Shown here piece after piece: positions 543 to 43,270 of a stretch of 64,000 nt of DNA. Below the pieces are notes generated by a model. The model ran no database searches and was not told where the DNA came from. It saw nothing but the letters and a program-made list of their open reading frames with translations. The position numbers were made by a program, and so were the translations under genes. Position 1 is the stretch's first letter; every line of letters starts with the position of its first letter. The stretch spans positions 6,035,013 through 6,099,012 of the forward strand of contig CM073324.1 of assembly GCA_037043015.1 (NCBI GenBank), written 5' to 3'. Source of the stretch: Bryum argenteum. Taxonomy: Eukaryota > Streptophyta > Bryopsida > Bryales > Bryaceae.

Positions 543-565
543 CACCGAATTCGTTAATTTTGCAC
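543..565 (+). repeat. Element 1 left terminal inverted repeat
   Basis: A 23-bp terminus starting CACCGAATT. It pairs with 11578-11600 with 18 of 23 identities. A subterminal TTTGCA/GTGCAA motif follows at about 559-592. Confidence 0.75.
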
Positions 566-923
566 CCAAGAAGTGCAATGTACATTTGCAATCTGTTTTT
601 ACCAAAATCCTTAATTTTTTGAAATTGGTATACCAAACCACTATCAATGTAGATATCCTATCTTCGTCATGACGACGTACACTTAATAAATGTCATTGCA
701 GCAAGCAAAACTTTTATACAAGAATTTTTAAAACACTCATGAAATTTTATCAACATTTTGGTAAGAATCGTTCATATGAGAACATGCAATTATTGCGATT
801 TAAAACTCAAATACATTCATGACAAAAGAAAGCTTTCATTACTTTACTCCAAAAAAAACATTACATGCTTTCTGGTCACAAATCAAATATATATTTGACA
901 CCATCCAAATATATTAAAACCTA
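543..923. other. Element 1 left subterminal region, non-coding
   Basis: This is AT-rich sequence between the left terminus and the stop codon of the minus-strand gene. It should contain that gene's 3' UTR. No other gene is seen. Confidence 0.5.
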
Positions 924-3191
924 TCAATGCAAGTCTGGAGGAGTTTCCGCTATTAACTCGACACTTTCAGATTGCGGTTGCTCCTCTCTGATGACAGGTG
1001 TAACTCCTCGCCCTTCACGTGGCCGCATCTCCCATGCAATCGAGGGGTCCGCATAATCCATTGCCCCTTCCGCCACCATAGCATCTATTACTCCAGATGG
1101 CACTCGTTCCAACCCTGAATTTTCCTCCAAAATAGACGATGCCTCCACAAAAGTATGGTTGCCTTCTTCACCAATGCGTCGAAACCTCACCCCCTTTGGA
1201 TTGAAGTAGAAACCCTCATTCCCTGGGATCATTGCGTGTTCGGTGTTTGCCCATTCAAAAGGTGCCTGCGAAGACGTTGTCTCTACTGGTAGCGGTAAAT
1301 CCTTTGTAACCGGTTCTTGATGTGCCCTATGAATTGGACTATTACCAACAGCTTCTCCAATAATGCCCTCCCCCTCTACCAACTGACTTCTAGGTACCGC
1401 ATCAAGTGGTCTCGGAGTTTCTTCTGCCCCTCCATCATTAGTACTCGCCGTCCTCATCCTTGATGTGTTCGTTGTTCTTGGTTGGGTATCATCATCTACT
1501 ATTGCCGATTGTGCAACCGTCTTCCGTCTTCTCTCCAATGGCTCCAAAGATTCTAACTCTGTGTCAGAATGATCGGAAACATGATCATCACTATCATCTT
1601 CATCGGTTGTAATGAACCTTTCTTCTTCAGATTCTTCTTCAGAATCTCTTTCATCTCCCTCTTCAATTTCATCTTCAGTATCCTCTGCATGTACTATTGA
1701 AGGTCCTGCTACGTCTGCCAAATTTTGTGGTGGTGATTGTCTCATGAAGCCCTTGAATTCTTGTAGTAGGGTATTGTACAAAAATGTTGTTCGGGCTTGA
1801 GATTGATCGAAGACAAAAATTTGTTGCCCTTCGAATCCACCTGTCAGTATCTCGGGAATGGATGTCGTAATCCCAAATGCCACCAGCGTCCATTTAGGAT
1901 GCAAATATGATTGAACAAGTCTACGCAATTCCATAGGATCTCTCTCTAGCTTGTCAACGCTTGAAGGCACCCTTCCAGCTGTCCAAGAGTCCAGAAAAAG
2001 GGTTGGGAGTACATCTTTTTTCTTCGGCAAATTCTTGATAGCTCCCGTATCAACTGGGTGTTCCATCAACACTACAATACTTCCAAGCGCTTGTACTTTG
2101 CGTCTAACCCTGCCGCCCTCCCTAAAATTCTTTTTGTAATCTTTAACGGTGTCTGATTGGAACGCCCAGATCCCTCTCACGCACGTCATTCCTTCTATGT
2201 CACCCAGAACATCCTGCATCTCGTCGCCATAGGTTTCTCCCCCCAAAGGAAATAATAAAAAGACTATAGTCCACCTTAAAATCTTACTCATCCACTTTCG
2301 TACCTTACCAAGTACGCTTTTGTATTCTCCCCTTGTCCAAGCTTTGTCCCGGCCATCCATACTCCCCCTTCGATAATCGAATACCCACAAACAAGGCATT
2401 TGCATTTCATGGTATTCATCACTAAAGAATCTGGAACTGCCTCTGATTGGAATCGTTCCCACACTATGGTCTTCATCTCCTTGCTTGACATCAACTCTCC
2501 AATCCCATCGGAAATTTCCTCTTGATCTCCCTCTTATTCCCAAACCTTCGTAACCTCTACCACCAACATTCACGTCTTCGAAATGTTGTTTCACATGGGC
2601 GTTGATTTTCTCTCCAAATTTAACCAAACTCCCCACGGTTTTCACGGATGGCATTGACCAAGTATTCTTCATGTCTTTGTCTATTTCCTCTGCAAGTGCT
2701 TGAAACTGTCTTGCCTTCTCTCCACCGTACCGCTCAACATCTATGCTGTAGAAATCTTCCATGGATGTTGGGCGCTCCATTCCTTTAGATACTATCAACC
2801 ACCGCAATGCATTTTGAACTGCCCGTCGACGTTGTAGTCGATCTATTATCCATTCGAGAGTTTGTTTTTCCATAAAACCCCTATGAGCCCTATTAAAATA
2901 GTACTTCTGGGAATTCCTCTTTCCATTTACAATAGGTTTAGCTACCATCTCCTTAGCCAATTGTAGGTACTCCTCAGGTGGTACCCTTGTTAAAGGCCTC
3001 AACCATGTTTTCTCCATCTTTGGTCTTTTTGGTCTTAGATCCCTCGTACTATCCAACCCCTTCTCCTTAGCATATTTTTTCCACTTTTTTTCATTTGCTT
3101 TACTATACCATAAACAACCATCTTCGTAGTCTTTGCACACCTCCAAAACAAATTTATAGCATTCTTCATTCTCGTTCCAGGCATGCCTAGT
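924..3191 (-). CDS. Methyltransferase-like half of Element 1 accessory gene, in frame downstream of a TGA
   Basis: This 755-codon open segment lies in the same frame as the 490-residue segment upstream of it and is separated from it only by TGA at 3192-3194. Counting from the TTG at 3146, residues about 240-470 resemble the methyltransferase part of the gene at 34.7-42.8 kb. A hydrophobic strand and loop (WVFDYRRGSMDG, about 254-265) stands where N4/N6 amino-methyltransferases carry DPPY. There follow a long helix, a strand VFLLFP, and then a segment 391-432 (VPSS..., then LVAFGITTS) that aligns with VPWRGP and GDIVLDWKAGTG of the other copy. The canonical G-x-G SAM loop and the DPPY motif are both absent here, so catalysis is doubtful. 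Residues about 485-545 are strongly acidic, followed by a low-complexity linker and a conserved-looking tail. No ATG exists near its start, which fits one gene with the upstream half rather than an independent gene. Confidence 0.6.
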   Translation of the reverse strand, partial: TRHAWNENEECYKFVLEVCKDYEDGCLWYSKANEKKWKKYAKEKGLDSTRDLRPKRPKMEKTWLRPLTRVPPEEYLQLAKEMVAKPIVNGKRNSQKYYFNRAHRGFMEKQTLEWIIDRLQRRRAVQNALRWLIVSKGMERPTSMEDFYSIDVERYGGEKARQFQALAEEIDKDMKNTWSMPSVKTVGSLVKFGEKINAHVKQHFEDVNVGGRGYEGLGIRGRSRGNFRWDWRVDVKQGDEDHSVGTIPIRGSSRFFSDEYHEMQMPCLWVFDYRRGSMDGRDKAWTRGEYKSVLGKVRKWMSKILRWTIVFLLFPLGGETYGDEMQDVLGDIEGMTCVRGIWAFQSDTVKDYKKNFREGGRVRRKVQALGSIVVLMEHPVDTGAIKNLPKKKDVLPTLFLDSWTAGRVPSSVDKLERDPMELRRLVQSYLHPKWTLVAFGITTSIPEILTGGFEGQQIFVFDQSQARTTFLYNTLLQEFKGFMRQSPPQNLADVAGPSIVHAEDTEDEIEEGDERDSEEESEEERFITTDEDDSDDHVSDHSDTELESLEPLERRRKTVAQSAIVDDDTQPRTTNTSRMRTASTNDGGAEETPRPLDAVPRSQLVEGEGIIGEAVGNSPIHRAHQEPVTKDLPLPVETTSSQAPFEWANTEHAMIPGNEGFYFNPKGVRFRRIGEEGNHTFVEASSILEENSGLERVPSGVIDAMVAEGAMDYADPSIAWEMRPREGRGVTPVIREEQPQSESVELIAETPPDLH

Positions 3192-4664
3192 TCAATCCAA
3201 CATCCGTTTTGCCACTAGTCCCAAAGGCTCCCGTGAAGTCATTTGCACGCTAAGATGCAACGCACTCGCTGCCATAGCTATTGCTTTGGCGCGGTTGGCG
3301 TCGTGAGCCCTCACTTCCGGATTGGGTTTCCCACAAGACTCCCAGATCTCCCTGAGCTTCACCAATTGGTCATGTAGTGACATGTAGAATTTTCTCTCAA
3401 ACTGCTTTGCATTGATCCGCACCGATGCCTCAATGTAAAAGTGAGGGTTGTTGTATACAACAAATTTTGCTGCCCGTTCTGAAAAAATACTTGCATATTC
3501 TTCCTGAGATAGTCTTTGTTGTTTTGCAAACTTGCATGCTTCTATGATGTGTTGCCCATCCACCGGTTCCCATATTATTGCATTTCGTAACCACTCCGTT
3601 TTTAAAATGCCCATTGTATTGTCATGTTGCCTTTGATACTTCTCAAATACGGTTTTGAAATGGTTCACTGTATCCTCCTTCCTGAATGGAACCTCTTTTT
3701 CTACTATATTGCCATCACCATCCACTCTCTTTTCAATAAATGCAACTGGCCGAAGTGTAATGGGGGACACGAGATCCTCATCATCTCCCCGTAGCCGCTC
3801 ATATATCTCAGCCACACGCTTCTTTGACAATGCCCGATGGTTAGTTTCTGCACTAACTGCACGTCGTACATTCTCCGTGCGAATCTTAAACACCGCCTCC
3901 ATCCTCCACACATATCCAGCTTTAAATTCCTCCTCTGTTGGAAATGCAACTGTAGGGCCTTTAGTATTTTTCTCCACTTCTCTTGGTTCTTCTTCATCGG
4001 ATGAAGGGTTGTCCAAATCTTCCGATCCCCGCCCTCTTGCTCCTTTCCGGGATTTTCCCTTATTCTTTGTGTTTTGTTGTACAACGCGTGCTTGCACTCT
4101 AGCTGCAGGTGTTTGAGTTTGTGGAGCTCTTGATATGGATGGTCTTCTTCCACGTCCTCTAGTCGATCCGCTGCCAGTCTGAGTTGGTGCTACTGATGTA
4201 GCTAGTCTTCCACTCCTTGAAATATTAATACTCGTATGAGTAGTAATATTATGATCACTTCGAACTTCTGTTGTAACTGGAGCTCCACCATGTGTACCAA
4301 TTTCAGAACTTTCAGGTCGCCCTCGTGATATTCCTCCTCCACCTGAACTGTATCCCCTCGATACTGCAACATTAGGTACACGTGATGTAGATGCTGGACT
4401 TCCAGTAGAAGCACGTGCTGCACTTCTCGCCCTCCTCACGCTAGTAGACGGACCTACTTCAGTAGCCCTCTGTGTTGGTGTTGGTCTTGTCGCACTTGGA
4501 GGTTGTGTTTGTGAAGAAGGTGCGTCTACTGGCTCTGTCTGCAGGACCGGATGTGTGACATGCTCTGTTTGTGATGGAATATCATCCCTTGCTCTATTAC
4601 TGACCACATCTGCATACGATCGATCAGGACTAGTGTGAGGTCCATGTGATGCCGCTCCCGACAC
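3192..4664 (-). CDS. ParB-like half of Element 1 accessory gene
   Basis: This is a 490-residue segment. Residues about 1-245 are Ser/Thr/Pro/Arg-rich low complexity, including a basic stretch near KNKGKSRKGARGRG. Residues about 248-490 form a folded domain with the core EPVDGQH at 366-372 followed by a helix, like the G-x-H-R core of ParB/Srx-type domains. PHFYIEASVRI and FYMSLHDQL follow and parallel the equivalent region of the 34.7-42.8 kb gene (FVWEGNHRLHA, then HAMHDINW). The open frame starts with GTG and contains no ATG until about residue 250, so an upstream spliced exon is expected. A possible acceptor is at about 4687 and a candidate ATG exon lies at 5138. The frame ends at TGA 3194-3192 and then continues open to 924. 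The stop could be a nonsense mutation, could be read through, or could lie in a phase-preserving intron of about 75 bp. Function by inference: DNA binding or nuclease-like role in the transposon. Confidence 0.6.
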   Translation of the reverse strand: MSGAASHGPHTSPDRSYADVVSNRARDDIPSQTEHVTHPVLQTEPVDAPSSQTQPPSATRPTPTQRATEVGPSTSVRRARSAARASTGSPASTSRVPNVAVSRGYSSGGGGISRGRPESSEIGTHGGAPVTTEVRSDHNITTHTSINISRSGRLATSVAPTQTGSGSTRGRGRRPSISRAPQTQTPAARVQARVVQQNTKNKGKSRKGARGRGSEDLDNPSSDEEEPREVEKNTKGPTVAFPTEEEFKAGYVWRMEAVFKIRTENVRRAVSAETNHRALSKKRVAEIYERLRGDDEDLVSPITLRPVAFIEKRVDGDGNIVEKEVPFRKEDTVNHFKTVFEKYQRQHDNTMGILKTEWLRNAIIWEPVDGQHIIEACKFAKQQRLSQEEYASIFSERAAKFVVYNNPHFYIEASVRINAKQFERKFYMSLHDQLVKLREIWESCGKPNPEVRAHDANRAKAIAMAASALHLSVQMTSREPLGLVAKRMLD

Positions 4665-4873
4665 TATGAGATCTCTTCTACATTAGCTCGTTCTTCTTTG
4701 CCGCGATTATATCCCTTCTCTCTTGAATATACCGATTTCTCATTTCTAAAACCTCCGAGGATTGCATTGCCTAGCTTTCACAATGGCAAAGTGATCGTTC
4801 CATCCTCACATCTTCTCACAAACCTTTCCAAAAAGATGCTAAAGAGCGCAATGTTCGGAGCGGTTTTGCGACT

Positions 4874-5138
4874 TCAAACAAACAAATTGGGAATTTCGCA
4901 ACATATTCCCCTTCTCAATCTTGTGCAGGTCGCTACATGTGCACGAGTTCGGACTTTCACTTGAACCAACCCCTCTGGAATTGCTACAATTTGTTCAATC
5001 TGCCCGACGTCCTTGCCGATTGCACAAATTTCCTGACCCCGTACCAACGGGTAGTCTGAAATCCATAATCGGAGCTTGGTCCTTGTTGGGAGCCAATATC
5101 ATCCACCCGTGCTCACTCCATTGACTTTGAGGTGCCAT
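4874..5138 (-). other. Coding-like segment, possible 5' exon of the Element 1 ParB/MTase-like gene
   Basis: From an ATG at 5138 the frame reads MAPQSQWSEHGWMILAPNKD and onward. After about residue 25, near 5064, the sensible reading shifts by one frame to a segment containing QIEQIVAIPEGLVQVKVRTR, ending at TGA 4876-4874. It may be the first exon of the downstream gene, carrying an indel, or a small broken gene. It is close to the 490-residue segment and on the same strand. A TATA-like tract lies about 50 bases upstream near 5185. I do not recognise a family. Confidence 0.35.
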
Positions 5139-5911
5139 GTTTAGTGTGCAGAAGTATCTAATAAACAAACGATAATCAGTATATGTATATAAAATGAAAT
5201 GAAGTTCTTAAGTAATAAACTATCATGTGATAATTTACATTCATCAATGTAATATATTTATGGGTATTTATTATTTTAAAAGTGAATAAAATGAAAAAAA
5301 TAAAAGTTTGTATTTTTACATTGGTTTTTTGTAAAAGTAATTTAAAAATTTAAAAAAAAAAAAAAGTTTGTAGGATAGAATTCAACAATGTTGTAAGAAA
5401 GAATGATTTCACAAACACATATAACTTTTGAGTTAACTGAATTTTTTTTTGTAGATTTTGGAAAATCAAATATTAAAACTATAAAAAATATAAAAAAGAT
5501 CTATACCCACAAAAATCCACAAATTACAAAAAACCTCAAGGGTACAAACCATCACAAATAAATTCAAAGAATGATTTTGCAATGAAACTCGTGGGTTACA
5601 TAAAGCTTTAATCTAATAAAAGAATAAAACTTGAAACAAACTTCAAAGCTCAAAAAACAACAATTAATACGAAAACCACAAATACCCACAAACAAAAAAA
5701 AAACTAGAACTTGAAAATATTCTTGAAATAAAATTCTAAAATTGCAACAAATAATGACACTAAAAAAGTAAAACTATAAAAATTGCAAAAGGTCCAAAAC
5801 CTACAAACGACACAAAATCCTATAACCACATAAAAGCACTCCAATAAATTCCTAAAACTCCAAAATAAATTACAAAAACCCGTAAAACCACATAACAATA
5901 TGAAAGAGAAG

Positions 5912-5943
<32 letters not shown>

Positions 5944-6538
5944 TAAATTCTTAAAGCTTCAAAATAAACTTGCAATGAAACCCTAGTATCCCATGAACAA
6001 TTTATACAAACACTAAAAACAATGTAACAACCAAAAAACTAAAATAAAATACAAAACCCTAAAACTACAAAAACATGAATTTGCAATGAAACCCTAGCAT
6101 TGCAAAAGAAAATTTACATGAACTTGTGAAATCATGTAAAATGTAGATTCTTAACAACGAAACCCTAATTTGTTCGGTATAAAAGGTTGAAATGGTGATC
6201 ATTTTTTCTTGTTTCAAAAAAATCTCACCTTCAAGGTATTTGAGAATTTCCAACTAATGAAAATAAAATGTGGGGAGGGGTACTTATACCCTCCCCGTGC
6301 CGCCTCGCCGCTGCCGCAAGGGAGGCGACCCTACCTTGCCAAGGGGCCCGGCGGCGAGGCGGCGAGGCCGCTAGCCTGCCCCGGCGGCCAGGCTGCCAAC
6401 CTGCCCCGGCGGCTAGGGCTGCCAGCCGGGGGCCAGTCAGCCGGCGGCCAGCCAGCCTGCCCCTAGCAGAGGCCACCCCTCCGCGCGTGCGGAGGGTAGG
6501 CTACCGCTGGGCGGCCAAACGGGGCTGTCCGGCGGCAG

Positions 6539-6572
<34 letters not shown>

Positions 6573-8001
6573 AAAAAAAAAAAAAAAACTAATTTTACAA
6601 GAATATTTTGAAGTTATTTGAAACCATTGCTTATTACTTTTTGAATTTGTTTTTCCTTTTCTTTTCCTTTTTTTTTTTTCTTTTTCTTTCTTTCTTCTCA
6701 GTTTTTGTTGTTTTCTTTTCTTTTTCTATTTTCTTGTACTTTTTATGGTTTGCTCTAGTATTTGCGTTGGGAAGTTGCATCTTCATGTTATATAGTATGG
6801 ATAAATAACATACATGTAGTATTTATAAGATACTTAAAGCAACCGTTTAATTCAAATTTTAGTTTACTTATGCTGTGAGATTCCCAAGTCTGTATGGCTC
6901 TAATTTACTCAAATTTGATGATATTGACTTGAAATTTTTTGGGAGCGCCGGTGGCACAATATTAATAGCACCTTCGACTATTTTCGGTTTTTTAGAAATA
7001 AAATAGAATTTCCATAAATATGACATTTTATAGTGAATTAAAATCATGGAGACGAAATCTTTTGATAATCTACTCTTATTTGTGTTATCAAACCAAAATA
7101 TACATTTTTACACTACCAAAAACTAAAATGGGATCCTCAACGTTTTTTTGTCATACGCTACGCAAGTAAAGGAATGTCCTAGGTCTTGCTTTTGTAATGT
7201 TCTTACAAAAATAAGGAAAGTTATTGTATTGATGAGAAACGTTGTTTACAATTTCAAGTATTTAGAATTGAAAAAATTGCTAGAGCAAGTACCAAGACGT
7301 TGTTTCGCTTGGACAACATTTTCAAAAAATCTTGCAAATCCCTAGTAGCGTTCTAGTGGTTTTCTTTATAAATTTCCATACATGAATAAAAGCTTTGAGG
7401 TACAAGGGGCATGCACATATTTTACTAATAATAATTTATGCTTAGAATCAAAGATCTTGGCAAATATGTAATTCTATCTCTTACCACATAATGATTTTCC
7501 ATATGCGAGACATATAGAGTGCATGTCATACACTATACAAAATTTACTAGTTTATTTTCAAAGATTGTGGCATGTGTAACACCCTTATCGGGATTTGGAA
7601 TTTAATTGGCTTCCAATTGTAAAACATACCTCATGTTTTAAGTCTCTCAAAATAGAGCTACCTTCATATTATTGCATGCTATACGTTCATATGATCTTCT
7701 TCAACTTTGTAACTTGTAGCAAAAAACCTACACTTGATTTGGAGTCCAACCTAGTTCTAATCTCCCAACATTGAATGCTATGAAAAAGTTTCAGGTCTCT
7801 TAAGTACTAGATTTGAGCTTGTCATCCAAAGTTTCCAACTAGGATCTCATAGATATTACATCAATTTGTAGTTCAAAATCAAGTGAACTTGATGATTTGG
7901 ACATTGTTAGTAGGGTTTGAAAAACAATGCTTACCTTGAGATTTCTAAGCTTTACATTATGAATGACATAGTGTTTGTGGGTTTATTGTAGGTAGATAAA
8001 A
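5139..8001. other. Element 1 central AT-rich spacer
   Basis: This lies between two divergently oriented genes and should hold both promoters. It is very AT-rich, with a 32-base A run at about 5910-5941. It contains the GC island at 6283-6540. No ORF here has coding character. Confidence 0.6.
6283..6589. other. GC-rich island bounded by long T and A runs
   Basis: About 260 bases of very GC-rich sequence (CCGGCGGC-type direct repeats) lie inside strongly AT-rich DNA. The island starts just after a near-palindrome (GGGGAGGGGTACTTATACCC) and ends in a run of 25 T (6541-6565), AAATT, then about 19 A. Open frames across it are by-products of base composition. It sits midway between the two outward-facing genes of Element 1, so a promoter or CpG-island role is possible. 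An unrelated nested insertion is equally possible. Confidence 0.55.
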
Positions 8002-11000
8002 ATGGAGAATTTGGGTTTTGGAAGTCCGGTTGTTGGGTATCAGAATGTAGCACCTCCCACAGCAAGAACAAATACGATGGGTAGAAGACTTGTACGTAGT
8101 CTTGCAACAGATTTTGACAGACAAACTCTTGGAGAGCAAGAGAACTTGAGTAGGCGAGATGGAGTTGTAGAGCTTCTTGTAGAGGACAACGTATTGGTGG
8201 GGCAAGGATTCGTAGATCTAACCTACAAACCGGGGATGGAATTACATTATTTGAAATTAACTCCGGACGAGGTTGCAGTGTGTGTAACGGAAGTCTTTCA
8301 AGGATCACTTTGGGTTGGTGAAGTTGTTGGAGAACGCCTTGAACAATGTGTAGGTTTGGTCATTCGTTGGAAGGCATCAAATTTGCGAAAAAGAAGTGGA
8401 TTGCCACAAAGAAACATTGGTTTAGAGGAAAGACAACCATTTACGTTTCAAAATGTGGGAACATCTGCGTTTGATTTTGACGATGACTTTAATCATGGAA
8501 TGCCCATTCCAATGTTTGAAAGCAACCTAGTGGGCAGCAGTGTCGGGGAACAATCACTACCAGTGACACCGGAGTCACAATCTAGTGTTGGAGGTATATT
8601 TGAAGCGGAAGGACTGGTGGAAGGTAGACCTCGGAGAAAATATTCGATGCAAAACCGGAGGAGTCGACCAACAAGAGTACGGGAGAGGGGGGAATCAGCG
8701 CAAACAAAAGTGACAATTGAAAGCGTACGGGCAGCAAAGGTCACAGGAGGTTGTACATTAAATTGTTTGCAGCATGTGAACGAGAGAGTAATTTTGGATA
8801 ATCGGTACATGGCATGGGCACAAAAGTATGAGAGCAAAGCTACATGGATTATGCAAATGCTGAATTCATTTTACACACGAACAAATACCAAACGGAAGGA
8901 AAAGTTTGACACCAAGCTGGATGGCCATCGTGTATGCAACGCATGCTATGCTCGAGCATTAGGATACTCCCAAAGGCGTTTCAAACAACTCAAACAAGCA
9001 CGATCACTATATGGAAGGGTAGCTGGCGTACATGGGAATAATGGTAAGCAGAAGGAGCAAGGGAAGATATCTGCAGCACGAGAAAGTTTTGCGGTGTTTG
9101 TCAATGAAGTGGGGTGTACCCAACCGCATCGACAAGTGAAGAGAAGATCAAATGATGCAATACTGCCGTTGATACTATTGCCAATGAATACGACAAAAAC
9201 TGATGTCTTTCATTATGTGAATGAGGAGGTGAAGAAGCTAGTTGACGGACATCCAATATCAATAAGTTCGTTTAACAAAATGTGGAGGACAGACTTTCCC
9301 CACGTGCAAATTCCACCATTCTCAAGGTTTTCAAAGTGCTTTCATTGCTGGGAGTACAAATGTGGCATGGAATCCACAACAAATGAGGCGGCCAAGGCAG
9401 AAATCAAAAAATTGTTTTTGGTACACATTAACCGTCAAATGGAAGAGCGTCGGGATTATTGGATTTTCAAAAGGTCAGCTATCATAACTCCGGATCTTTT
9501 CATGAGCATAATCGTAGATGGGATGGACCAAAATACAACAATGGTGCCAAAGATGAAGCAAACAGTCAAAAACATTGAATGGCGGTTCGTGAAAACACAC
9601 CTATGCGGAGTGCTTGTGCACGGGATTGGGCTTTATGCAGATGTATGGCTCGATGCACACCACAAGCACGATAGCAATCAAGTTGTTACCTCGTTGATGC
9701 ATGTTATTACGGATGTGAAGAGGAGGAAAGGAATGTTGCCACCAACTTTACGAATTCAAGCGGATAATACGACTCGGGAGAACAAGAACATATACATGTT
9801 CGCCTTGTGTGTAGCACTAGTGGGTCTCGGGTTTTTCCAAGAGGTGGGGCTATGTTTTCTATTGGTTGGACACACACATGAAGATATAGACCAACGTTTT
9901 AGTACCATTTCAAATACATTGAAGAGGAGCGACATTGATTCCATGAAGGAGTTACTATCACTAGTCGAGAGAGGAACCTCGTATACTGAAGCGTATGTGA
10001 GTGCGAGGCATTTAGAGAATGTGAGAGATTGGAAGTCTTTCATCACTCCTCATTTGCTCAGAGGAGGCGATAATTTGACTGGCATAACTTTCCCACATCA
10101 CATGCGATTTTACATGGTGGGTGGAATACCTCGAGTACAGTCTAAGACTTTCAGTAAGGATGCTTGGGTACCAGCGGATGGGCATCCATGTTTGAGATCA
10201 ATGCCTACTAGAGCCGAGAAGCCAATGCTAGCTGAGGTATTTGGAGCTGATGCAAGGGAATTGAGGGCATTAGAAGATTTTGTGGCCTACAAGGAGAAGT
10301 GTGTAGAACGATTCCAAAACGTGGAGAAGAACTTGGAAGCCATTGATCAAGCAAAGTGGTTGGCAGATTATTTGGAACACTTTCCTGAACAAGATAGGAG
10401 CACGGCAACAAATGCCCCTTTTTGGCCAGAAGACAACCAAAGCCCAAATAGAGCAACCGGAAATGCACCTGCAACTTCTATCGAAAATCAAGATGGAACG
10501 TTGGACACGAGCACGGTGGATCTTATAATGAGAACAATGCCTAATCCAGAACGAAGGCAATATTTTGGTCCTCGTAGGGAGAGACCATTAGAAGAGGCTG
10601 CGACAAGAGCACCAACGAGACGTAGTACTTCAATACTAGAGTCGCATGTACTAATTACACCAGAGAATGGAGAAGCTCCGTTTACCCATTTTAGTCCAGA
10701 TGATGATGTGAAGGTTGGACACTTTGTAGCGCTGACGGTAGATCCCACGGAGGTTCAAGCAGGTGTACCGTTTTATATTGGAAAAGTTTTGGAATTTGGT
10801 CATGGAAGGTGGGCAACAAAAATGAAAGTAGTGTGGTATTGGCCGCAATGGAGGGGATTGCGAGAAATATCATCGGTTCCTGATAAACAACGGTATTTGA
10901 ATTGCATGGAGTCAAAGTGGGAGCCATCGGGTGAAAGACATGGATGGGTGGAGAAAGAAGCATCGATTTATTCATGGGTGGATGAAACGCAACATGCAAG

Positions 11001-11577: not shown

Positions 11578-11600
11578 GTGCAAAAATTCCTAATTCTGTG
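11578..11600 (-). repeat. Element 1 right terminal inverted repeat
   Basis: A 23-bp terminus that reads CACAGAATTAGG inward on the minus strand. It pairs with 543-565 at 18 of 23 positions. Confidence 0.75.
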
Positions 11601-11945
11601 TTTAATAAGTTAAACTAACATTCTATCATGCTACCTTCAACATGGATATAGAGTTTTTATTCTTCATGAACATGATGGCTTTTCCCTTGCACCATTTTCT
11701 GTACAACATTTTAAAAAAGTCCAAACTTACGACCTTTTTATAATTTACTTACACAATCAAATATTTTTTCTTAAAAAAAAAAGCATGTATGCAAATGAAA
11801 CGTCTAAGTATTTTTTATGACGACCCAAGCCATTCATAAGGTCTAAAGAGGGCAAAATCCTCTCATCACATTGGTCCATCTTTTGGATTCAACCTGAAAT
11901 GATTGGATCAAACTTCCAAAATTCTACGTACTAACAAATTGCCTT

Positions 11946-33976: not shown

Positions 33977-34593
33977 ATGAAGGAAGGTGAAGCGTCGACT
34001 CCTCCCACTTTTGTGACACCTAAGCGGAGGAGGAAACGGGGAAGCACAAACTTTTCGAATAGGAAAGCGAGACAAAGGAGAGAAGCACGAAAGAAGGTAG
34101 ATGGGGATAGAACTCTTCCAAATGCACCTGTGAAGGTCCAAGGAGATGCGTCGGGCGTTAGTTTAAGGTTTCGAAGCATTCGTAAACTCCTTATAGAATC
34201 TATAGTTGAGAGAGAAGGAGAGGATATTGAGGACACCATTGTTCGGTGTCACCAGCACGACACACATAACATTGAGGGAGTAGGCCACGAAATGAATGAG
34301 GAGCACTACTTGGAGTATGAACAGTCGCCAGAGTCACCGCAACCTTCTATCGGTAAAAAATACTCTCCATCAGGTGACGATTTCGTAGATAATATATCAG
34401 GAGAAGATTGCGACCCGCAAGAAGTAAGTTAACGATCTCAATTCCCTAAAGTGGATTTCATATTGTTACTTGACGTTGTGCTAATTATTTTAATGTGTAG
34501 AGGATTCATCGTATTCTTCCACTTCCATTAGTCCTTGATTGGAAAGGGTTGTTCACGGAGTCCATAACTCACATTCTTGGTAGGAGGAATTAG
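33977..34593 (+). CDS. Small basic/acidic protein of unknown function, 179 residues, two exons
   Basis: Exon 1 runs 33977-34423 and ends GAA|GTAAGT. Exon 2 begins after GTGTAG at 34501 and reads RIHRILPLPLVLDWKGLFTE to TAG at 34591-34593. The phase is kept (0). The first 45 residues are strongly basic (PKRRRKRGSTN, KARQRREARKK), a likely nuclear or DNA-binding tail. The middle, about 75-148, is acidic. I recognise no family. It lies between the divergent transposase-like gene and the ParB/methyltransferase-like gene on the latter's strand, so it may be an extra Element 2 gene. A GT exists at 34580, so longer splice forms cannot be excluded. Confidence 0.5.
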
Positions 34594-34685
34594 GGTTTTT
34601 CATTCCAAGGCGGAGTAGGAGCAAGGTGGGCGGCGGTTTAGGATCTGGGAGTATAGAGGCGGGCGAAGGAGGGTCGAAGGGAGGA

Positions 34686-37600
34686 ATGGAGGGCGAAGGA
34701 GAAGCTTGGGAAGGAATGGAATCCGAGGCCAAGGAAGCTGAAGTGGAACGATCGGCGGCCGCAACCAACATGGAGCAGGTGAGTATTCGTTGGAAGGCAT
34801 GGGCATTCTTCCATAGTGTGTTTTAGGGTTTGTCGGCTCTGGAGGGTTTGCCGCAGGGAGTGGTTACGGTAGGGAGGGGAATGGTCAGAGAGTGTGGGAG
34901 GGTCCACGGTCGAGGAAGGCGATGGTCGGGAGGTGCCGAAATTTGGCAGGTGGGGAGGGGAAGTGAAGTTGGGAGGGAAAGAGATGTGGGGGGAGTGAAA
35001 TCGGAAGGCGCTGAAGATGGTCGCGAAGTCTGGGAGGGAGAGGATCAGTTTGGCAGGTGGTGATGCATGGATTGGACGAGCTGGAAAGTCCATCCAGTTG
35101 ATTCGGATCGATCCGACAACGGCTCCTCCCACACAACGGCTCCTCCCACACCACTGTCTGCTCCGACAGCGGCAGTGGACGAGAGAGAGTTTTGGGGGAG
35201 ACCCACTCCCACGTCCTCCACACGTTCAGATGACAGCAGTATACCCTGTCAAACTTACCATGAAACCCGCACAAGCGAGGTTGAGCACGCCGAGTCGAGC
35301 TTCTGCATGAACCTGCGAAGTGTGGCTTCGGTGACGACGTACCTTACTCTGCTGGGTTGTGATTCCTCGTGACGGTCACAGGTGCCTTCGGGACAAAACG
35401 CTTACCACTCAAAGCTCTTCTGTTGGTCGATACCTTTCATTGAATATCCTTCTCGCCACCTGCCGTTCAGTTGTCGCTTCAAGGTACCGTATTCCGTGTT
35501 TCTGCTCTCCTCATTTGATGCTGTTCGCATGCATTGTGAGTCTTCATCTTCGAAGAGACGGTTTGTTTATTTTTTCGGCTTTTCTATGGATCTCATATTG
35601 GCAATGAAAAGGTCTGGACTATTTTGTGCGAAGAGAAAGAATTTTTAATTTAGTGGAACAGAAGTCGAGGAACCTTTCTTTATAGTCTTTCGTGTCCTTT
35701 GATCTCTTGGGAGAGCTGATATAGATTTTCGAGCAGGCGTTCGTGCAGCTCTGTCTGCATTTTAGAGAGAGCTGTGTGGCAGCTATCCACGAGTCTGTTC
35801 TTTGCAATACATTTCTTGGAGTATTGTCGTGGTGCATTTTTTTCTAGCGACGCGGGAAATAGAACATAATGCTCCTTGTTCAATTTTCGGTATCGTTGTC
35901 GTGTGTGGTAATTTGTACTCGATTTTCTGTCCGTCTCTACCTTCTAAAAACTTAAATTGTTCCATATTCATTCACTGGATGATGGTGGAAGGGAGCGATA
36001 TTGACGACTCACGTTCCTAATTCTGGTTTCGGCTTGTTCAGGAAATTTGCTGCGAACGAAGCATCGTAGAAAGGTGTTAAGAGACCGGTTTTGAGAATGA
36101 ACAGCCGAGCATTACTCTTGAGAAGGTCATTCTTTTGTGCTGAACGCGAATTGTGCCTTCATGGTCGGGGCTTGAGAACATTTGCTGGAGACACATCTGG
36201 GCTTGGCTGTAGTTTATGCTTTCATGGACAAATACATCTTGAGTCGTCACATCGTTTGAGGTGGCAAGCGAATGCAGTTGCCGAGCTCTCCAAAGACCGA
36301 TTCTCACATCGACATTGGCGGCCCAGCAGAGACGATTTATCGAATGTAGACTCTGCTGTGTACATCATCGAAGAGTAAGAGCTTGTGCTTGCTCGAAATT
36401 GAAGCCTTTCCAGATTCTAACTGCACTTCATATTGATCAGATGACTTTTTACTTATCATTTACGCTTATGAAGACGATTTACATTTCCAGGATATGTGCA
36501 TGATGCCACGGTTATTTTTGGGCCGTGAGGGCGCAAACTCGGCGTTCAGATTTTGTTTTTCGTCGTCCTCGCGTTCTCGGACAGAGCCTCGGCCGGATCT
36601 CACCACGGCCACGCACCCACTGTCTGCTCCGACAGTGGGCCGCAACGGCGCAAGCTCGGCGTTGAGGTTTTGTTTTCCATCCTCCTCACCTTCTCGGACA
36701 GAGCCTCGGCCGGATCTCACCACGGCCACGCACCCACTGTCTGCTCCGACAGTGGGCCGCGAGGGCGCAAGCTCGGCGTTGAGATTTTGTTTTCCGTCGT
36801 CCTCGCCTTCTCGGAGAGAGCCTCGGCCGGATCCCACCACGGCCACGCACCCACTGTCTGCTCCGACAGTGGGCCGCAACGGCGCAAGCTCGGCGTTGAG
36901 GTTTTGTTTTCCATCCACCTCACCTTCTCGGACAGAGCCTCGGCCGGATCTCACCACGGCCACGCACCCACTGTCTGCTCCGACAGTGGGCCGCGAGGGC
37001 GCAAGCTCGGCGTTGAGATTTTGTTTTCCGTCGTCCTCGCCTTCTCGGAGAGAGCCTCGGCCGGATCCCACCACGGCCACGCACCCACTGTCTGCTCCGA
37101 CAGTGGGCCTCAACGGCGCAAGCTCGGCGTTGAGGTTTTGTTTTCCATCCACCTCACCTTCTCGGACAGAGCCTCGGCCGGATCTCACCACGGCCACGCA
37201 CCCACTGTCTGCTCCGACAGTGGGCCGCGAGGGCGCAAGCTCGGCGTTGAGATTTTGTTTTCCGTCGTCCTCGCCTTCTCGGAGAGAGCCTCGGCCGGAT
37301 CCCACCACGGCCACGCACCCACTGTCTGCTCCGACAGTGGGCCGCAACGGCGCAAGCTCGGCGTTGAGGTTTTGTTTTCCATCCTCCTCACCTTCTCGGA
37401 CAGAGCCTCGGCGGATCTCACCACGGCCACGCACCCACCGCCTCGCTCCGACGATGGGCGCGAGGGCGCAAGCTCGGCGTTGAGATTTTGTTTTCCGTCG
37501 TCCTCGCCTTCTCGGAGAGAGCCTCGGCGGATCCCACCACGGCCACGCACCCACCGCCTCGCTCCGACGGTGGGCATAACGGCGCAAGCTCGGCGTTGAG

Positions 37601-40600
37601 GTTTTGTTTTCCATCCTCCTCACCTTCTCGGACGAGCCTCGGCCGGATCTCACCACGGCCACGCACCCACCGCCCTCCGCCGACGATGGGCGCGAGGGCG
37701 CAAGCTCGGCGTTGAGATTTTGTTTTCCGTCGTCCTCGCCTTCTCGGAGAGAGCCTCGGCCGGATCCCACCACGGCCACGCACCCACTGTCTGCTCCGAC
37801 AGTGGGCCGGGAGGGCGCAAGCTCGGCGTTGAGATTTTATTTTCCGTCCTCCTCACCTTCTCGGACAGAGCCTCGGCCGGATCTCACCACGGCCATGCAC
37901 CCATTGTCTGCTCTGACAGTGGGCCGGGTGGGCGCAAGCTCGGCGTTGAGATTTTGTTTTCCGTCGTCCTCGCCTTCTCGGAGAGAGCCTCGGCCGGATC
38001 CCACCACGGCCACGCACCCACTGTCTGCTCCGACAGTGGGCCTTGGGGGCCGCGAGGGCGCAAGCTCGGTGTGGATTTTTTGTTTTGGTTTCCTACGATT
38101 GTCGCGCATGTGGGTGGATGTTTCGGGTGATAGGGAGCGGAGAGGGACAGGAAGTGCTCGCAGACTGTGTGCGCGCTGGAGGGGAGCAAGGTTTGGGCCG
38201 GGAATGAGGCCGCGGTCCTACTGTTAGAGCAGAGAGTGGGCTGCGTCGGCAGAACCTCTGAGTTTCGTTTGTAACAATATAGACAATACCATGTGGCTTC
38301 CTCTACTATGCTTTCAAATGTTTTTAATATTCTATTGATGTTCTCTCTTTTTAGGAGTCATCTCAAGACATCATGGAGATCGAAGACCCAGCCCAGATTC
38401 CGGAGGAAACTGAGGTATTTAAAGTGATTCGAACCTTGGAATTCTTTGTGGGTGGTACATTTATATCTTGAATTTCTTTTCAGTTCTGTTAACTTCTTTA
38501 ATCGCTTGGTCGTTAAAAAGCGCGCCTAATTTGGACTTGTACAAAGGCTAGGGATTACTAGAGACGTTCGTCACGTAGACCTGCTTCGAAGTGATTCTTT
38601 GGGCGACATATGATCATTGAGTTGTGACATGAGACTTTTATTTAAGAGATGATTTCGTGATGATTTCAGTATGATCTTCTCTAATGATTTCACTTCTCGA
38701 TGTGTTGAGGTTCAGTATTTAATTGTATAATATTTGGCAGGAATATCAAACTCAAGACGTGTTGCCAACAACTTCTTGTCCCAGTGGCTTGAACAACGCT
38801 CTTGAAAGCGAATTGCGGCATCGAACACAGCACAAGGTGGACTCCATCAACGTCATTAACAGCCTTCGAATTCATCCCTTGAAGAAGTCGCGGCTGCTTG
38901 TCCCCTTGTGTCGGATGATATCAATGGCTAAGGTAAGGCCAATTGGTGAAATGGGAATACAGCATCTGGAGAGGGAGTTTGTGAAGGGCTATCGAGATGG
39001 AGACCGCGTCATGTACATTTCTATGTACAACAACGAGGAGTTGTCATCGGATGTTACGGAGGAGGTTAAGTCCAGTTGGAGCCCACTTTGGCAATCGGCG
39101 AACCAAGCTTTTGAAGAAGAGCTTCAAAGTGACTGTGATCTACGGCAATTCTCTGGAAAGATGTTCTTTGTTTGGGAAGGTAACCATCGCCTCCATGCAT
39201 GGTTAAGACATATTAATAATCATCATGGCGAGGACCCCGATTGGCACATCTCTGTGCATTGCATTCTTCTAGATCCCCGTGGTCAAGTTGGCAACCTTCT
39301 TCATGCAATGCACGATATCAACTGGTAAGTGTCTACCTCTTTCTTTTTATCCACACTCTTGAAAGCTAGGTTTTATTTAATACCAGTAGTGCTAATTCTC
39401 TTCTTTTTTGTGTAGGTCTACTGAAAATGACCACGTGAAAAGTAATCTTCCCGCAAAGCTTTTCCGCATTCGATCGTTTGGTGCTATGAAGTTGGAGGAA
39501 TTCAAGGATCTCCTCACTCCAGATGAGTTCCGTATCTGTTTGACGAACAAGCCATCTAATCCGAGATGGTTTACATTGACAACGAAAGTATTCATTGCCT
39601 TCCTTTACCGAGTAAGTATTCATTCAATACTTAGTTATCATTTGTTCCGTAGAAGGATTCATAGTTTGAATCCGTTTCTCAATTTATTTTCTTTTTACAG
39701 CGGGAGATTGCCGCGGCTTCGGATGAAGCCGCTAGGGCATACACTGAAAAAACACCCAAAGAGGAACAAACTGCTACAGGAGTTTGGGATGCAATGACAT
39801 TGGCATCGAGATAACATGGTCGATGCCATTAAGAAGAAAGACTTCACCAAGTATTTGGCTATCGCTAATCCCAAAAATGGCGACGATTTTCTCGGCGAGG
39901 TGAGACTCTAAACACTACTATGGTAGTTATATTGAACATATTTTACTATCATTCAATTTATCTACGTGGTTATGTCATGTTATTCTCTCAGATCAATCGA
40001 CATTTCAGTGAATTTCAGAAACCTGAGATGACACTTGATAAGCTCCAGAAGATTGTTCCCGCTAATGTGGAAGCCAAATACAAAGCGCGTTGGCTGAGGT
40101 GGTGGAACTCTTCCCCAAGTTCGCGGGTTTCGTATAGATTTCTCCCGCCGGAATTCAAGGAAGCCGACCTCGACCCTTGGTTGAACAAGGCAGCATTTTG
40201 GGCAGGGGTATAGTTTCCATAAATCCTTTCAAATTGCTTAAAATATTCTCAATTCGGCTCAATTCATTCTCGTCTCTCATGAATTACATTTGTTCTTCTA
40301 GTTGGAGGAAGCCGTTGTTCACGAGTTCGAGGACATATGCAAGGCGGAGAAGCTCGTCATCAACTGGAAGGCATCTCCAGATGTTCTGCGACCTGGCGCC
40401 TATGTGGACAGTTGGCGTATTCTACTATGGGAGAAGGCATTCCCCACATTCATAGGTCCCAGAATTGAGAAGGTTTTTGATAAGAAGTCAAACTTCAGCA
40501 AATTCCCGGGAACGTCAGAGGTTGTCAAGCGGGTTACGTACCGGTATGCACACGAACTCAACCTCCCTTGCTTTATCATTGATGTCCCTTATTCTACGAT

Positions 40601-42788
40601 ACCTTAGTGACTAGAAAAAATTGCATTTGTAATTGATTAGGTACTTCAAGAGGGAGCTACTTCCGAAAGGTGCCATCGATGTACAATCGCTCCCGAAGTA
40701 CTTTGCAGCATGGATTCAGAAAGGTTCAGACCAATGTATCTATACTGCTCAACAGTTGAAAAGGTACAAACAACCACACTTGGATGCAGGATGTTGGTAT
40801 CTCGACTGCGTTCGTGGATTTGTCTTTGATTCAGAGGCCGAGGTGATGACCTTACATGATGGCGGACTGGAGGTGGAAGAAGATACCATGCAAGTTCGTG
40901 AAGAAGACGAAGGGCTCCAGGATCAGTCCTTTGTAGCGCCACCTAAGCCGAAGAGGGGGCGACGTTTGCGTCGAGGGACGGACATTGTGTCCTTGGGTTC
41001 GGAGTCCCAAGCATCAGAACTAGGGCAAACGGAGTCATCCGCACAAGGGTCCGGTGCCGTCCTTGCAACTCAATCTAATGTCGTCGCTAAACTGTCACTT
41101 GCTCCGTCGACCGTGCCTTCCTCAGTGAGTGCATTCGAGATCACAAAAGGTCTCATTGAGCAGAGGAAGGCGAAACAAATCCCCGCTAGCAGCTCTTCAA
41201 GTGGAATTCCACATTCGTCCAAAGTTTTCGTCTCCAACAATTCTGTGGAGACATTGATGTCTTTGCACTCGAAAACGTACAAAGTTAGCGGTGGCGATCA
41301 AAGATGGATTCAGTTTCACGACTTCATTCGCAAGGTACAATCCTTTACATGGACTCCCCTTGTATGCATTACTGTCTAATTAGTACAAGAAAGACTAACT
41401 TTGCTTACTACTTTCTTCCAGGTTGGAGAAGGCCGCCAAACACAAGTTCCGGAACGATGCGAGGAAGAGAAGCACTCGGGGATCGATTTGATCATTGCCG
41501 ACATCCCTGAGAATCTACCCGTACCAACAATATCCAATCCTTCTTCAAGCATTCCGCCGTGGAACGCTCGACACACCGGATATGTGGAAACCATCTTCGA
41601 ATTTGCAAGCGATTTCTTGCAAAATGATGGTGCTCTCCTTCTCTTTCTCTGCGATGATCGACACCTTATTACAGACATTTTTGATCAGGCTCACACCTAC
41701 GACTTCGTGTTGCACAAGGACTGGTGGGGCATCAACGACCTGGGCTTGGCTTCTCCAAAGGACTCCAACTCCACGGTAATTGAAACCATTCTGAATCCAA
41801 TGATGACATTGTGCACTCCGGTTATGAATTTAGTTGTTTTTTTCTCACATGTTTTGGTTTACTGCAGTCTATTCGATTCTGGATTTACGTCTTCATTCGA
41901 GGTGGCGACGTGACCTCTACCTTCACATTCCAGACGAAGAAATCTGAGGTCATACATGAGGACGTTAATATAACCAAGAGCGATGCCCTGTTCAACCTCA
42001 CCACTTTGGAGACTCAGCTCATGAACGGGAACGTTCCTTGGAGAGGACCAAGGGAGAAAGCCCCTTTGTTTGTGCAGGCCCTCATTGAGCAGCTAACCAA
42101 GCCCGGTGACATAGTCCTCGATTGGAAGGCAGGAACAGGTAACCGATCACTTAATCGTTCCGCATTTCCATTTTTCTCACTTTCTGAATTCAGTCTCACT
42201 TCTTTATGCTTTAAATTTCAGGGGCTTCCATTAAGGCCTGCCAGAGATTGGTCGCCATGTTCGGCGTTTGAGGATGACGAACCCATCTACAACGCCCTTT
42301 AGCTCCGTATGCCGCCCCTAAACATCTCATGGCCCCACCTAAACATCCAAGACCTTCGCCTGATGGCGAAGCCCGTAGCAAGAAACCAAAAAAACGCAAA
42401 CGCTGGGATTGTAAGTAAGTCTTACTTTATATTTCCATACTCGTAGTCGCATCATCTTACCTTCACTTCTACATACATCTCTACGTATTCATTCTAACGA
42501 CTATTCGATACATACTGCAGAGTACTTGCAGCAACACCACGACCTCTGCCAAGTCCCGTGCCCATTCCATCGTGGCGTATAAACACCAGTCCCATTCAGC
42601 CTTATGTTCTTCCAGAGTACGCTGAAGAATTAGCACTAGCGTTTCAGTCCGGCGCCGTTAGATATGATCCTAGTCGAGCTACTACTTGTGATCCGAGAGC
42701 CCTTGTGTTTATGGGTACCGAGGCTTTAGAAGGAGATTCTGAGTCCTGGAGATCAGATAGTGGAAGTAGCGATGGTAGCATATCTTGA
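34686..42788 (+). CDS. ParB-like / amino-methyltransferase-like protein, multi-exon, frame-disrupted
   Basis: Proposed exons: 34686-34778, 38355-38414, 38741-39324, 39416-39611, 39701-39899, 39992-40207, 40302-40543, 40641-41334, 41422-41775, 41868-42138, 42222-42414, 42521-42788. All introns are GT-AG with matching phases, giving about 1120 residues. The start exon is acidic and less certain, leaving a 3.6-kb first intron that holds the minisatellite. A ParB/Srx-like core (VWEGNHRLHA, near residue 198) is followed by HAMHDINW. From about residue 762 comes a class-beta methyltransferase-like domain: IDLIIADIPENLP where DPPY is expected, VPWRGP, and GDIVLDWKAGTG as the SAM loop. A tail carries the basic patch KKPKKRKR. 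Frame breaks: one-base shift near 39790-39806 and two compensating shifts in exon 42222-42414 (before EDDEPIYNAL and after it). The architecture equals phage-type ParB-methylase fusions. Activity is doubtful. Confidence 0.65.
34779..38354. other. GC-rich first-intron or promoter region of the ParB/MTase-like gene
   Basis: This is much richer in GC than its surroundings. At 35115-35150 CAACGGCTCCTCCCACAC is nearly doubled, and at about 35149-35178 a single stray copy of the minisatellite hairpin (CCACTGTCTGCTCCGACAG) appears. A coding-looking stretch at 36091-36378 is not recognised. The 117-bp array at 36531-38070 lies here. An alternative promoter inside this region is possible. Confidence 0.45.
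36531..38070 (+). repeat. GC-rich minisatellite, about 13 units of 117 bp, each with a hairpin
   Basis: Units repeat every 117 bases (GGATCT/GGATCC at 36595, 36712, 36829 and onward). Two unit types alternate: one has TTCCATC(C)CTCACC...GGATCTC, the other TTCCGTCGTCCTCGCC...GGATCCC, giving a 234-bp higher-order period. Most units contain CCCACTGTC-TGCTCC-GACAGTGGG, a perfect 9-bp stem with a 6-base loop. In the units around 37430-37690 this hairpin is degraded. Since 117 is divisible by three and stops are rare, frames over 300 codons stay open on both strands; these are artefacts. Confidence 0.92.
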
Positions 42789-43133
42789 GTTTGAACGACG
42801 TTTCGAACATTTGTTGTTTTCATTTCATTTTATTTGATTTGATTGGACTTGATTGGATTTGATTACATATTGTTTCGAAATTTCATACACACACATCTAA
42901 CATGTTTGTACTCGACCATCATGGTTTTATTAGTTTTTTCCCATTTTACATTCTTACATTTGTCCACGGTCATAGGTGTTGTTCTCTTTAATTCTCTCCA
43001 TTTCCAGAATGGGTCTTTCAATTTATAACCAAAATCTTCCATTAATAATGTTAAACCTTCCAAAAATCCACGGTCATAGGACCTCTTCGCCGAGACTGTT
43101 TTTGTTTTTTCCCCAGAAAGTCAACTCCCTGAG

Positions 43134-43181
43134 CCTGCTCGCGGCTCGCTGCTCGCTGCTCGTGGCTCACATCTTAGCAGC
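43134..43181 (-). repeat. Right arm of 48-bp inverted repeat
   Basis: Its complement reads GCTGCTAAGATGTGAGCCAC and onward, matching 29128-29175 except at two bases. Confidence 0.9.
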
Positions 43182-43270
43182 TGCCGTGCCAACTTGGGAC
43201 TCGCAAGTGTATACCTCGTATACGCAAGTAATCACCAAGGACCACTTTCTTGCCAATTTTACCCCTCGGA

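What the first reader, a model, noticed from the sequence alone, without database searches (positions are those of the whole stretch)
543..43270. Two transposons with different transposases carry the same ParB-like/methyltransferase-like gene in the same outward-facing layout
Element 1 (543-11600) has a DUF7869-type transposase-like gene. Element 2 (about 28620-43270) has a MULE/SWIM-type one. Each also has a gene with a ParB/Srx-like core (VDGQH; WEGNHRLHA) followed by a class-beta amino-methyltransferase-like domain, transcribed away from the transposase with GC-rich DNA in the centre. The order VP-x-loop, helix, then SAM-loop region aligns by eye. ParB-methylase fusions are known from phages; a plant transposon module of this kind is new to me. 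Inference: the module may mark, protect or silence element DNA, or act as a DNA-binding partner of the transposase.
Basis: partly seen in the sequence, partly recalled or inferred. Interest (0 to 1): 0.9.

Follow-up and report, generated by a model that had tools for sequence, protein, structure and literature searches.

The report
ParB-methylase-like genes in moss transposons
Two unrelated families of jumping genes in a moss-like genome each carry a second gene, in one family a ParB-plus-methylase protein of a type lately reported from algal transposons but with an altered active site, together with arrays of mirror-image DNA sites in front of it that it may grip to control its own element.

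Summary
Both elements are real. Element 1 (541-11602) has TIRs, a 4-bp TSD and a DUF7869 transposase-like gene. Each has a divergent companion gene. Element 2's (B2) has a ParB/Srx-type fold and a beta-class methyltransferase-like domain in which DPPY reads D[AVI]PEN. Element 1's (B1) gives a methyltransferase-like fold from a poor model; its ParB part is not shown. B1 and B2 share no detectable sequence similarity. The transposase link is strong: 81 of 160 B1 loci have DUF7869 divergently upstream (random 0.8); 44 of 150 B2 hits have the MULE there. ParB-methyltransferase companions are already in print for brown, green and red algal transposons (PMC12477816, passage). New here: moss Mutator members, the altered motif, and palindromic arrays upstream of B2 (24-bp type: 120 sites, control 0; 16-bp type: 233, control 17). 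Best reading: a probably non-catalytic DNA-binding factor that grips its own element, VANC-like. Binding and anti-silencing are inferred.

The parts
541..11602 (.). Element 1: TIR transposon (AACAC...GTGTT), TSD TAAT at 537-540 and 11603-11606
   Evidence: 31 left-end matches begin at query bases 125-145, 15 of them at 142 (window 541); 7 right-end matches stop at window 11602-11607. TSDs in 4 of 5 copies examined.
925..5138 (-). B1 gene (damaged): N-terminal domain, ParB-like stretch (about 3290-3900, EPVDGQH, by eye), helical region, methyltransferase-like domain (about 1746-2471), acidic tail
   Evidence: ORFs 3192-4682 and 924-3191 in one frame split by TGA; relatives with open frames of 1205-1416 aa; methyltransferase-like fold from a poor model
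6290..6540 (.). GC-rich centre of element 1 with short 15- and 25-bp repeats, between the divergent genes
   Evidence: a 501-base query over 6000-6500 gives 62 match rows in the genome, several per copy in places
8002..11163 (+). DUF7869 transposase-like gene
   Evidence: PF25273 E 4.3e-50
29115..29123 (.). Target-site duplication, left copy (GTGCCAACT); right copy at 43186-43194
   Evidence: joined flanks restore the 21-bp repeat register
29124..43185 (.). Element 2: Mutator-type element, 14,062 bp, TIRs of about 52 bp
   Evidence: 9-bp TSD, TIRs identical at 46 of 48 aligned positions; right-end matches in other copies stop at window 43185-43192
29705..33365 (-). Mutator-type transposase gene (ORFs 30942-33365 and 29705-31048), SWIM-like motif near the C-terminus (by eye)
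   Evidence: 1224 first-look candidates in this genome, 103 scored
36519..38042 (.). GC-rich array of about 13 units of 117 bp carrying the 24-bp palindrome CCCACTGTC-TGCTCC-GACAGTGGG: 9 exact copies (36616, 36733, 36850, 36967, 37084, 37201, 37318, 37783, 38017) and one with 2 changes (37900)
38373..42788 (+). B2 gene (damaged, about 11 exons with splice sites inferred by GT-AG): ParB/Srx-type domain, spacer, beta-class methyltransferase-like domain
   Evidence: domains
38741..39324 (+). B2 exon 2: ParB/Srx-type domain (FFVWEGNHRLHAW; VHCILLDP...AMHDIN)
41422..42300 (+). B2 exons 8-10: methyltransferase-like domain (IIADIPEN = motif IV; VLDWKAGTG = motif I)
   Evidence: PF01555 E 1.7e-5; a relative aligns its motifs to DPPYN and DPFMGSG of M1.HpyAVI at E 0.29-0.32

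Best explanation
B2, and probably B1, are transposon-encoded companion proteins of the transposase. B2 belongs with the ParB-methyltransferase accessory proteins reported from algal transposons, ultimately of the bacterial/phage fusion type. Its methyltransferase core is kept by selection but its catalytic motif is changed, so it most likely works as a DNA- or cofactor-binding platform and not as an active methylase. A dimer of B2 most likely binds the palindromic arrays that lie upstream of its own gene, between it and the divergent transposase gene. From there it controls the element's two genes or keeps the element free of silencing, as VANC proteins do for Arabidopsis VANDAL elements. Shown: anatomy, TSDs, divergent pairing with the transposase, the two B2 domains, the altered motif, purifying selection in the copies compared, palindromic arrays in front of B2. 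Inferred: that B2 binds these sites, that it is catalytically dead, that the outcome is expression or anti-silencing, that B1 works alike, and kinship with the algal proteins, whose sequences were not compared.
For: Pairing: 81 of 160 distinct B1 loci have a listed DUF7869 hit upstream on the opposite strand within 20 kb, 3 in another arrangement, 76 none listed; random mean 0.8 and maximum 4 in 500 rotations; 45 of the 50 best DUF7869 hits have B1. B2 and MULE: 44 of 150 B2 hits divergent, 1 otherwise, random 2.6 for any arrangement; B1 with MULE 0 of 150, B2 with DUF7869 1 of 150. ParB fold of B2. Methyltransferase domain of B2. Selection: dN/dS 0.14 (ParB-like), 0.09 (helical), 0.22 (methyltransferase-like) against 0.53 and 0.58 for linker and tail in one B1 pair; 0.05-0.15 in the 4 of 6 pairs of the B2 motif-IV exon where dS could be estimated. 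Palindromes: 120 exact 24-bp sites against 0 for the reversed pattern; the 50 listed form 9 clusters, all 9 upstream of a listed B2 copy, nearest site 0.6-2.0 kb away. CTTTCG-N4-CGAAAG: 233 against 17; with up to 2 changes, 3 to 5 sites upstream of B2 in 11 of the 16 loci that lack the 24-bp site, none elsewhere in those 11; flanks covary (column pair 4/23: three pair types, 20 of 21 sites paired). [quoted passage not shown]
Against: No binding, expression or methylation data. Binding of the sites by B2 rather than by the transposase or a host factor is inferred from position alone. No DNA-binding (HTH) part of B2 was identified. The region upstream of B1 showed GC-rich tracts in 4 of 5 elements read but no repeated palindrome. 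Of 25 listed clusters of CTTTCG sites on C1 only 9 lie near a listed B2, MULE or methyltransferase hit (random mean 1.2, maximum 6 in 1000), though the lists hold about a tenth of the first-look candidates; some single sites with spacer TCAC/GTGA lie at a near-fixed distance from a MULE hit and may be coding sequence. In one search two of five measures (pairs with a change on both sides, further pair types) do not exceed the shuffles. Twelve comparisons of the window's B1 ParB-like stretch with close copies give dN/dS 0.10-0.63; the four highest (0.46-0.63) have dS under 0.05. An altered but active methyltransferase cannot be excluded; the Ectocarpus relative is predicted to be active by its authors.
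Confidence: 0.5

Rival explanations
1. Active methylase: B2 (and B1) methylate adenine-N6 or cytosine-N4 in element DNA and so mark or protect it, as suggested for the algal relatives.
For: B2 keeps the beta-class motif order, a partial SAM loop and the acidic residue after it; the domain is under purifying selection in the copies compared; the authors of PMC12477816 predict N4/N6 methylation for the Ectocarpus protein.
Against: Motif IV DPPY is D[AVI]PEN in 5 of 5 B2 sequences read and D-C/Y-R in 11 of 11 B1 sequences; motif I glycines are changed.
Confidence: 0.17
2. Transposition co-factor: B2/B1 act with the transposase in excision or insertion, like maize mudrB, and the palindromes are regulatory sites of something else.
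For: Pairing of each B family with one transposase type; mudrB-type second genes of MULEs are known (PMC6446971, passages).
Against: The arrays lie in the centre, away from the TIRs; nothing here ties B2 to the ends.
Confidence: 0.2
3. A eukaryotic ParB-parS-like clamp: B2 loads at the palindromes with a nucleotide, as CTP-using ParB does at parS, and spreads along the element, excluding silencing machinery or holding copies together.
For: Best structural rows include ParB proteins solved with CTP analogues or CDP; a 16-bp palindromic core in arrays next to the gene; GNHR-type loop at the place of the superfamily's nucleotide-site motif (motif identity recalled).
Against: Key CTP-binding residues, clamp formation and the HTH domain were not tested; site sequence is not that of parS (recalled); no ParA-like partner was looked for.
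Confidence: 0.1
4. Passengers: host or bacterial gene fragments captured by transposons with no role.
For: MULEs are known to acquire gene fragments (PMC6446971, listing and passage); the window copies are damaged.
Against: More than a hundred copies in one divergent layout (81 B1, 44 B2) and low dN/dS in the domains.
Confidence: 0.03

Closest known systems
ParB-methyltransferase accessory proteins of algal transposons (PMC12477816: abstract, passages and reference entries read; its references 50, Iyer 2011, and 51, Petroll 2025, not read)
   Same: [quoted passage not shown] suggested there to bind and modify its own element
   Different: Reported for a Sola1 element of a brown alga and, by citation, for green and red algal transposons; here Mutator-type (B2) and possibly DUF7869 (B1) elements of a moss-like genome, motif IV altered, palindromic arrays found, high copy number. 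Sequences were not compared
VANC anti-silencing proteins of Arabidopsis VANDAL elements (PMC5735166: abstract, section 9 and passages read)
   Same: Companion gene of a DNA transposon (classed with MULEs in PMC6446971); motifs in tandem repeats in non-coding DNA of the element, in introns or upstream regions; motifs differ between families
   Different: VANC has DUF1985/DUF287 domains and short motifs arrayed in one orientation; here ParB/Srx plus methyltransferase-like protein and palindromes. Demethylation is shown for VANC, not here
Transposon-borne TET/JBP dioxygenases of fungi (PMC12730594: abstract and outline read)
   Same: DNA-modification-related proteins carried by several unrelated transposon lineages
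   Different: There one enzyme family moves between transposons; here B1 and B2 show no detectable sequence similarity
Bacterial/phage ParB-methylase fusions (PMC5512222: start of abstract and passages read; Bce_0392 named there)
   Same: ParB domain fused to an adenine methylase
   Different: Those are prokaryotic; in B2 a long spacer separates the domains, the gene has introns and motif IV is D[AVI]PEN

Membership tests
ParB/Srx superfamily (B2) | Fold of the domain | tested here: met
   [not shown]
ParB/Srx superfamily (B2) | Detectable sequence profile match | tested here: inconclusive
   No ParB hit in Pfam for 41 members or in PDB sequences
ParB/Srx superfamily (B1) | Fold or profile of the EPVDGQH region | tested here: inconclusive
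   Model poor, pLDDT 45; no profile hit; no ParB row among the 50 shown in each; resemblance by eye only
Beta-class amino-methyltransferase (B2) | N6_N4_Mtase profile | tested here: inconclusive
   E 1.7e-5, 25.4 bits, just under the cut-off of 26.7, covering 28-202 of 221; 17.2 and 20.5 bits for two relatives; methyltransferase PHROGs, best E 3.9e-4
Beta-class amino-methyltransferase (B2) | Catalytic motif (D/N/S)PP(Y/F/W) (recalled) | tested here: not met
   D[AVI]PEN in 5 of 5 sequences read
Beta-class amino-methyltransferase (B1) | Permuted methyltransferase fold | tested here: inconclusive
   [not shown]
ParB-methyltransferase accessory proteins of algal transposons | Both domains in one protein, opposite strand to the transposase (B2) | tested here: met
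ParB-methyltransferase accessory proteins of algal transposons | Common ancestry with the algal proteins | not tested
   Algal sequences were not fetched
Mutator/MULE (element 2) | 9-11-bp TSD and TIRs | tested here: met
   GTGCCAACT twice; TIRs identical at 46 of 48 aligned positions, one copy examined
Mutator/MULE (element 2) | MULE transposase domain | tested here: inconclusive
   No Pfam MULE match; SWIM E 0.71
DUF7869 (PF25273) | Profile over cut-off | tested here: met
   170.4 bits, cut-off 26
VANC anti-silencing proteins | DUF1985-type protein | tested here: not met
   No such Pfam hit in the B2 exon pieces searched; exons 3-6 were not searched
VANC anti-silencing proteins | Loss of DNA methylation at elements with the motif | not testable with these tools
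   Needs methylation data
ParB-parS partition systems | CTP-dependent clamp and parS binding | not testable with these tools
   Needs biochemistry; only fold and palindromic arrays are seen

The most novel reading that the evidence does not exclude
A moss Mutator superfamily carries a eukaryotic ParB-parS-like module: a ParB-fold protein fused to an inactivated beta-class methyltransferase loads at arrays of subfamily-specific palindromes and spreads over the transposon to keep it open. A second, sequence-unrelated transposon superfamily in the same genome carries a companion of the same general design.
Probability: 0.13. Interest if true: 0.9.

Novelty: new variant of a known kind. Interest (0 to 1): 0.65.

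Why it matters
How transposons escape or control silencing in early land plants is little known. ParB-methyltransferase accessory genes were lately noted in algal transposons and suggested to bind and modify their own element; the passage I saw names no binding sites. Here large, abundant families of a moss-like genome carry such genes, in one family with a changed active site and with arrays of palindromes right in front of the gene. This gives a directly testable protein-DNA pair, extends the class to land plants, and argues that at least some members may act by binding and not by methylation. Arrays that differ between subfamilies are a natural experiment in co-evolution of a DNA-binding protein and its target.

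Tried and rejected

Print: listings (at most 10 rows each) showed me no earlier report, and one search found no paper naming DUF7869. PMC12477816 was already in the listing and I passed over it; on checking it describes the general idea in algae. Its cited source for red algae is not held; its other cited source was not looked up. For this reason I lowered interest and the clamp and novel-case odds, and raised the active-methylase odds slightly.
Full report
Setting. The window is G000:C4:6035013-6099012 of a 259-Mb genome in 25 contigs, 11 of them seen here, 7 to 44 Mb long. It holds a TIR, NB-ARC and LRR gene stretch. A relative of element 2's companion gene is named Ceratodon purpureus, a moss (P0134). 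I take the genome to be a moss; this is inference.

Element 1. Thirty-one left-end matches in other copies begin at query bases 125-145, 15 of them at base 142, which is window 541; 7 right-end matches stop at window 11602-11607. The outermost bases are AACAC...GTGTT and the flanks repeat TAAT. Four more copies were read: three have TATA, TATT and TAAA, one has no TSD. Its DUF7869 gene (8002-11163) matches PF25273 at E 4.3e-50. The divergent gene B1 (5138 to 925, minus) is damaged here, but relatives with open frames up to 1416 aa exist.

Element 2. TSD GTGCCAACT at 29115-29123 and 43186-43194 and near-identical TIRs place it at 29124-43185. The transposase gene has no MULE match in Pfam; the Mutator assignment rests on TSD, TIRs and a SWIM-like motif seen by eye. 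Gene B2 spans about 38373-42788 in about 11 exons and is damaged.

Link to transposases. Two searches with B1 queries (150 rows used from each) give 160 distinct loci; 81 have a listed DUF7869 hit upstream on the other strand within 20 kb, 3 have one in another arrangement, 76 have none listed; rotations give 0.8 on average, at most 4. Only 150 of 1812 DUF7869 first-look candidates were scored and listed, so 81 is a lower bound. Of the 50 best DUF7869 hits 45 have B1; of the last 50 listed, 5 do, so part of the DUF7869 family seems to lack B1. For B2, 44 of 150 hits have one of 103 MULE places divergently upstream and 1 has one otherwise (random 2.6 for any arrangement; the lists hold 150 of 1132 and 103 of 1224 candidates). 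B1 beside a MULE: 0 of 150; B2 beside DUF7869: 1 of 150. The methyltransferase exon of B2 follows a listed ParB exon on the same strand in 36 of 118 rows, 32 of them at 2.35-2.73 kb; 4 have one otherwise and 78 none; 38 of 118 have a listed MULE divergently upstream, 2 one otherwise.

Selection. Between two B1 genes with open frames (L069, L070) dN/dS is 0.14 in the ParB-like part, 0.09 in the helical part, 0.22 in the methyltransferase-like part, against 0.53 in the linker and 0.58 in the acidic tail. In the exon with motif IV of B2 it is 0.05-0.15 in the 4 of 6 pairs where dS could be estimated. Twelve comparisons of the window's B1 ParB-like stretch with close copies give 0.10-0.63, the four highest with dS under 0.05. 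The domains are kept in the copies compared.

Palindromic arrays. The GC-rich centre of element 2 is an array of 117-bp units. Its core is a perfect 9-6-9 palindrome, CCCACTGTC-TGCTCC-GACAGTGGG, with 9 exact copies. Thirteen of the 29 other B2 loci fetched have sites with at most 8 changes within about 1.6 kb, upstream of the ParB exon; a 37-base piece around the core has no match in the 38 control loci L001-L038. In 8 of the 13 the spacer is mostly GGAGCA, the reverse complement, while the flanks keep their direction: between the two groups arms are 0.91-0.92 identical, neighbouring 20-bp blocks 0.24-0.54, spacer 0.39 directly and 0.88 when reversed (arms are biased upwards by the choice of sites). 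Genome-wide there are 120 exact sites and none for the pattern read backwards. The 50 listed sites form 9 clusters, all 9 upstream of a listed B2 copy, nearest site 0.6-2.0 kb away; in 6 of the 9 a listed MULE lies on the other side within 8 kb (the script's 'between' column means nothing for the other 3, whose nearest listed MULE is 0.16 Mb or more away). The 16 loci without that site were then examined for CTTTCG-N4-CGAAAG with up to 2 changes: 3 to 5 sites upstream of B2 in 11, one in 1, none in 4; no match in the rest of those 11 loci. Exact sites in the genome: 233 against 17 for the control. Flanking pairs covary: column pair 4/23 has A-T, G-C and T-A and pairs in 20 of 21 distinct sites; 26 cells with changes on both sides against 9.8 in shuffles, 81% of cells paired against at most 56% when slid; two further measures do not exceed the shuffles (related sites can inflate such counts). 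On C1, 9 of 25 listed clusters lie near a listed B2, MULE or methyltransferase hit (random mean 1.2, maximum 6) and 1 near a listed DUF7869 or B1.

Mechanism. Palindromes suit a dimer. They sit between the two divergent genes, away from the TIRs, and differ between subfamilies. VANC targets in Arabidopsis VANDAL elements likewise form tandem repeats in non-coding DNA and differ between families (PMC5735166, abstract, section 9 and passages), and VANC removes methylation. I therefore favour a VANC-like role for B2 with a different protein and a different kind of site. The step from position to binding is inference. A ParB-type loading and spreading mechanism is possible but untested.

Comparison with what is known. 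[quoted passage not shown] sources cited there not read). So the kind of gene is known. What I did not see in print in the listings named under Tried and rejected is its presence in Mutator-type elements of a moss-like genome, the altered motif, the palindromic arrays, and a second such companion with DUF7869. Companion genes of MULEs are known (mudrB, vanB, vanC; PMC6446971 passages), fungal transposons of several superfamilies carry TET/JBP genes (PMC12730594 abstract), and a ParB-methylase of Bacillus cereus is named in PMC5512222 (passages).

Noticed in passing
window 28629-29132 and 43184-43246: A diverged 21-bp tandem array (consensus near AAGTGCGAACTTGGGACCCGC) split by element 2; similar stretches at C5:13552855-13555864 and C5:10000590-10000961
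   Followed up: partly
window 45191-49084: TIR, NB-ARC and LRR ORFs in order on the minus strand, a plant-type immune receptor gene
   Followed up: no
window 20145-20867: Carbohydrate phosphorylase exon (PF00343 E 9.1e-37)
   Followed up: no
G000, DUF7869 hits ranked 101-150: A group of DUF7869 genes mostly without a listed B1 nearby; L086 beside one shows a tandem SSTRAKL-coding repeat and no B1-type ORF
   Followed up: partly
L069, L070, L072, about 1.2-2.4 kb upstream of B1: GC-rich tracts (250-bp windows up to 0.58-0.67), with short tandem repeats of different sequence in L069 and L070; L071 shows no such tract above 0.48
   Followed up: partly
L073 (C4:5559300-5564300): A B2 copy interrupted after exon 6 by a long G-rich insertion
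   Followed up: no
L040-L064, 24-bp sites: The 6-bp spacer is inverted between two groups of copies while the flanks keep their direction, as if the palindrome itself had flipped
   Followed up: partly
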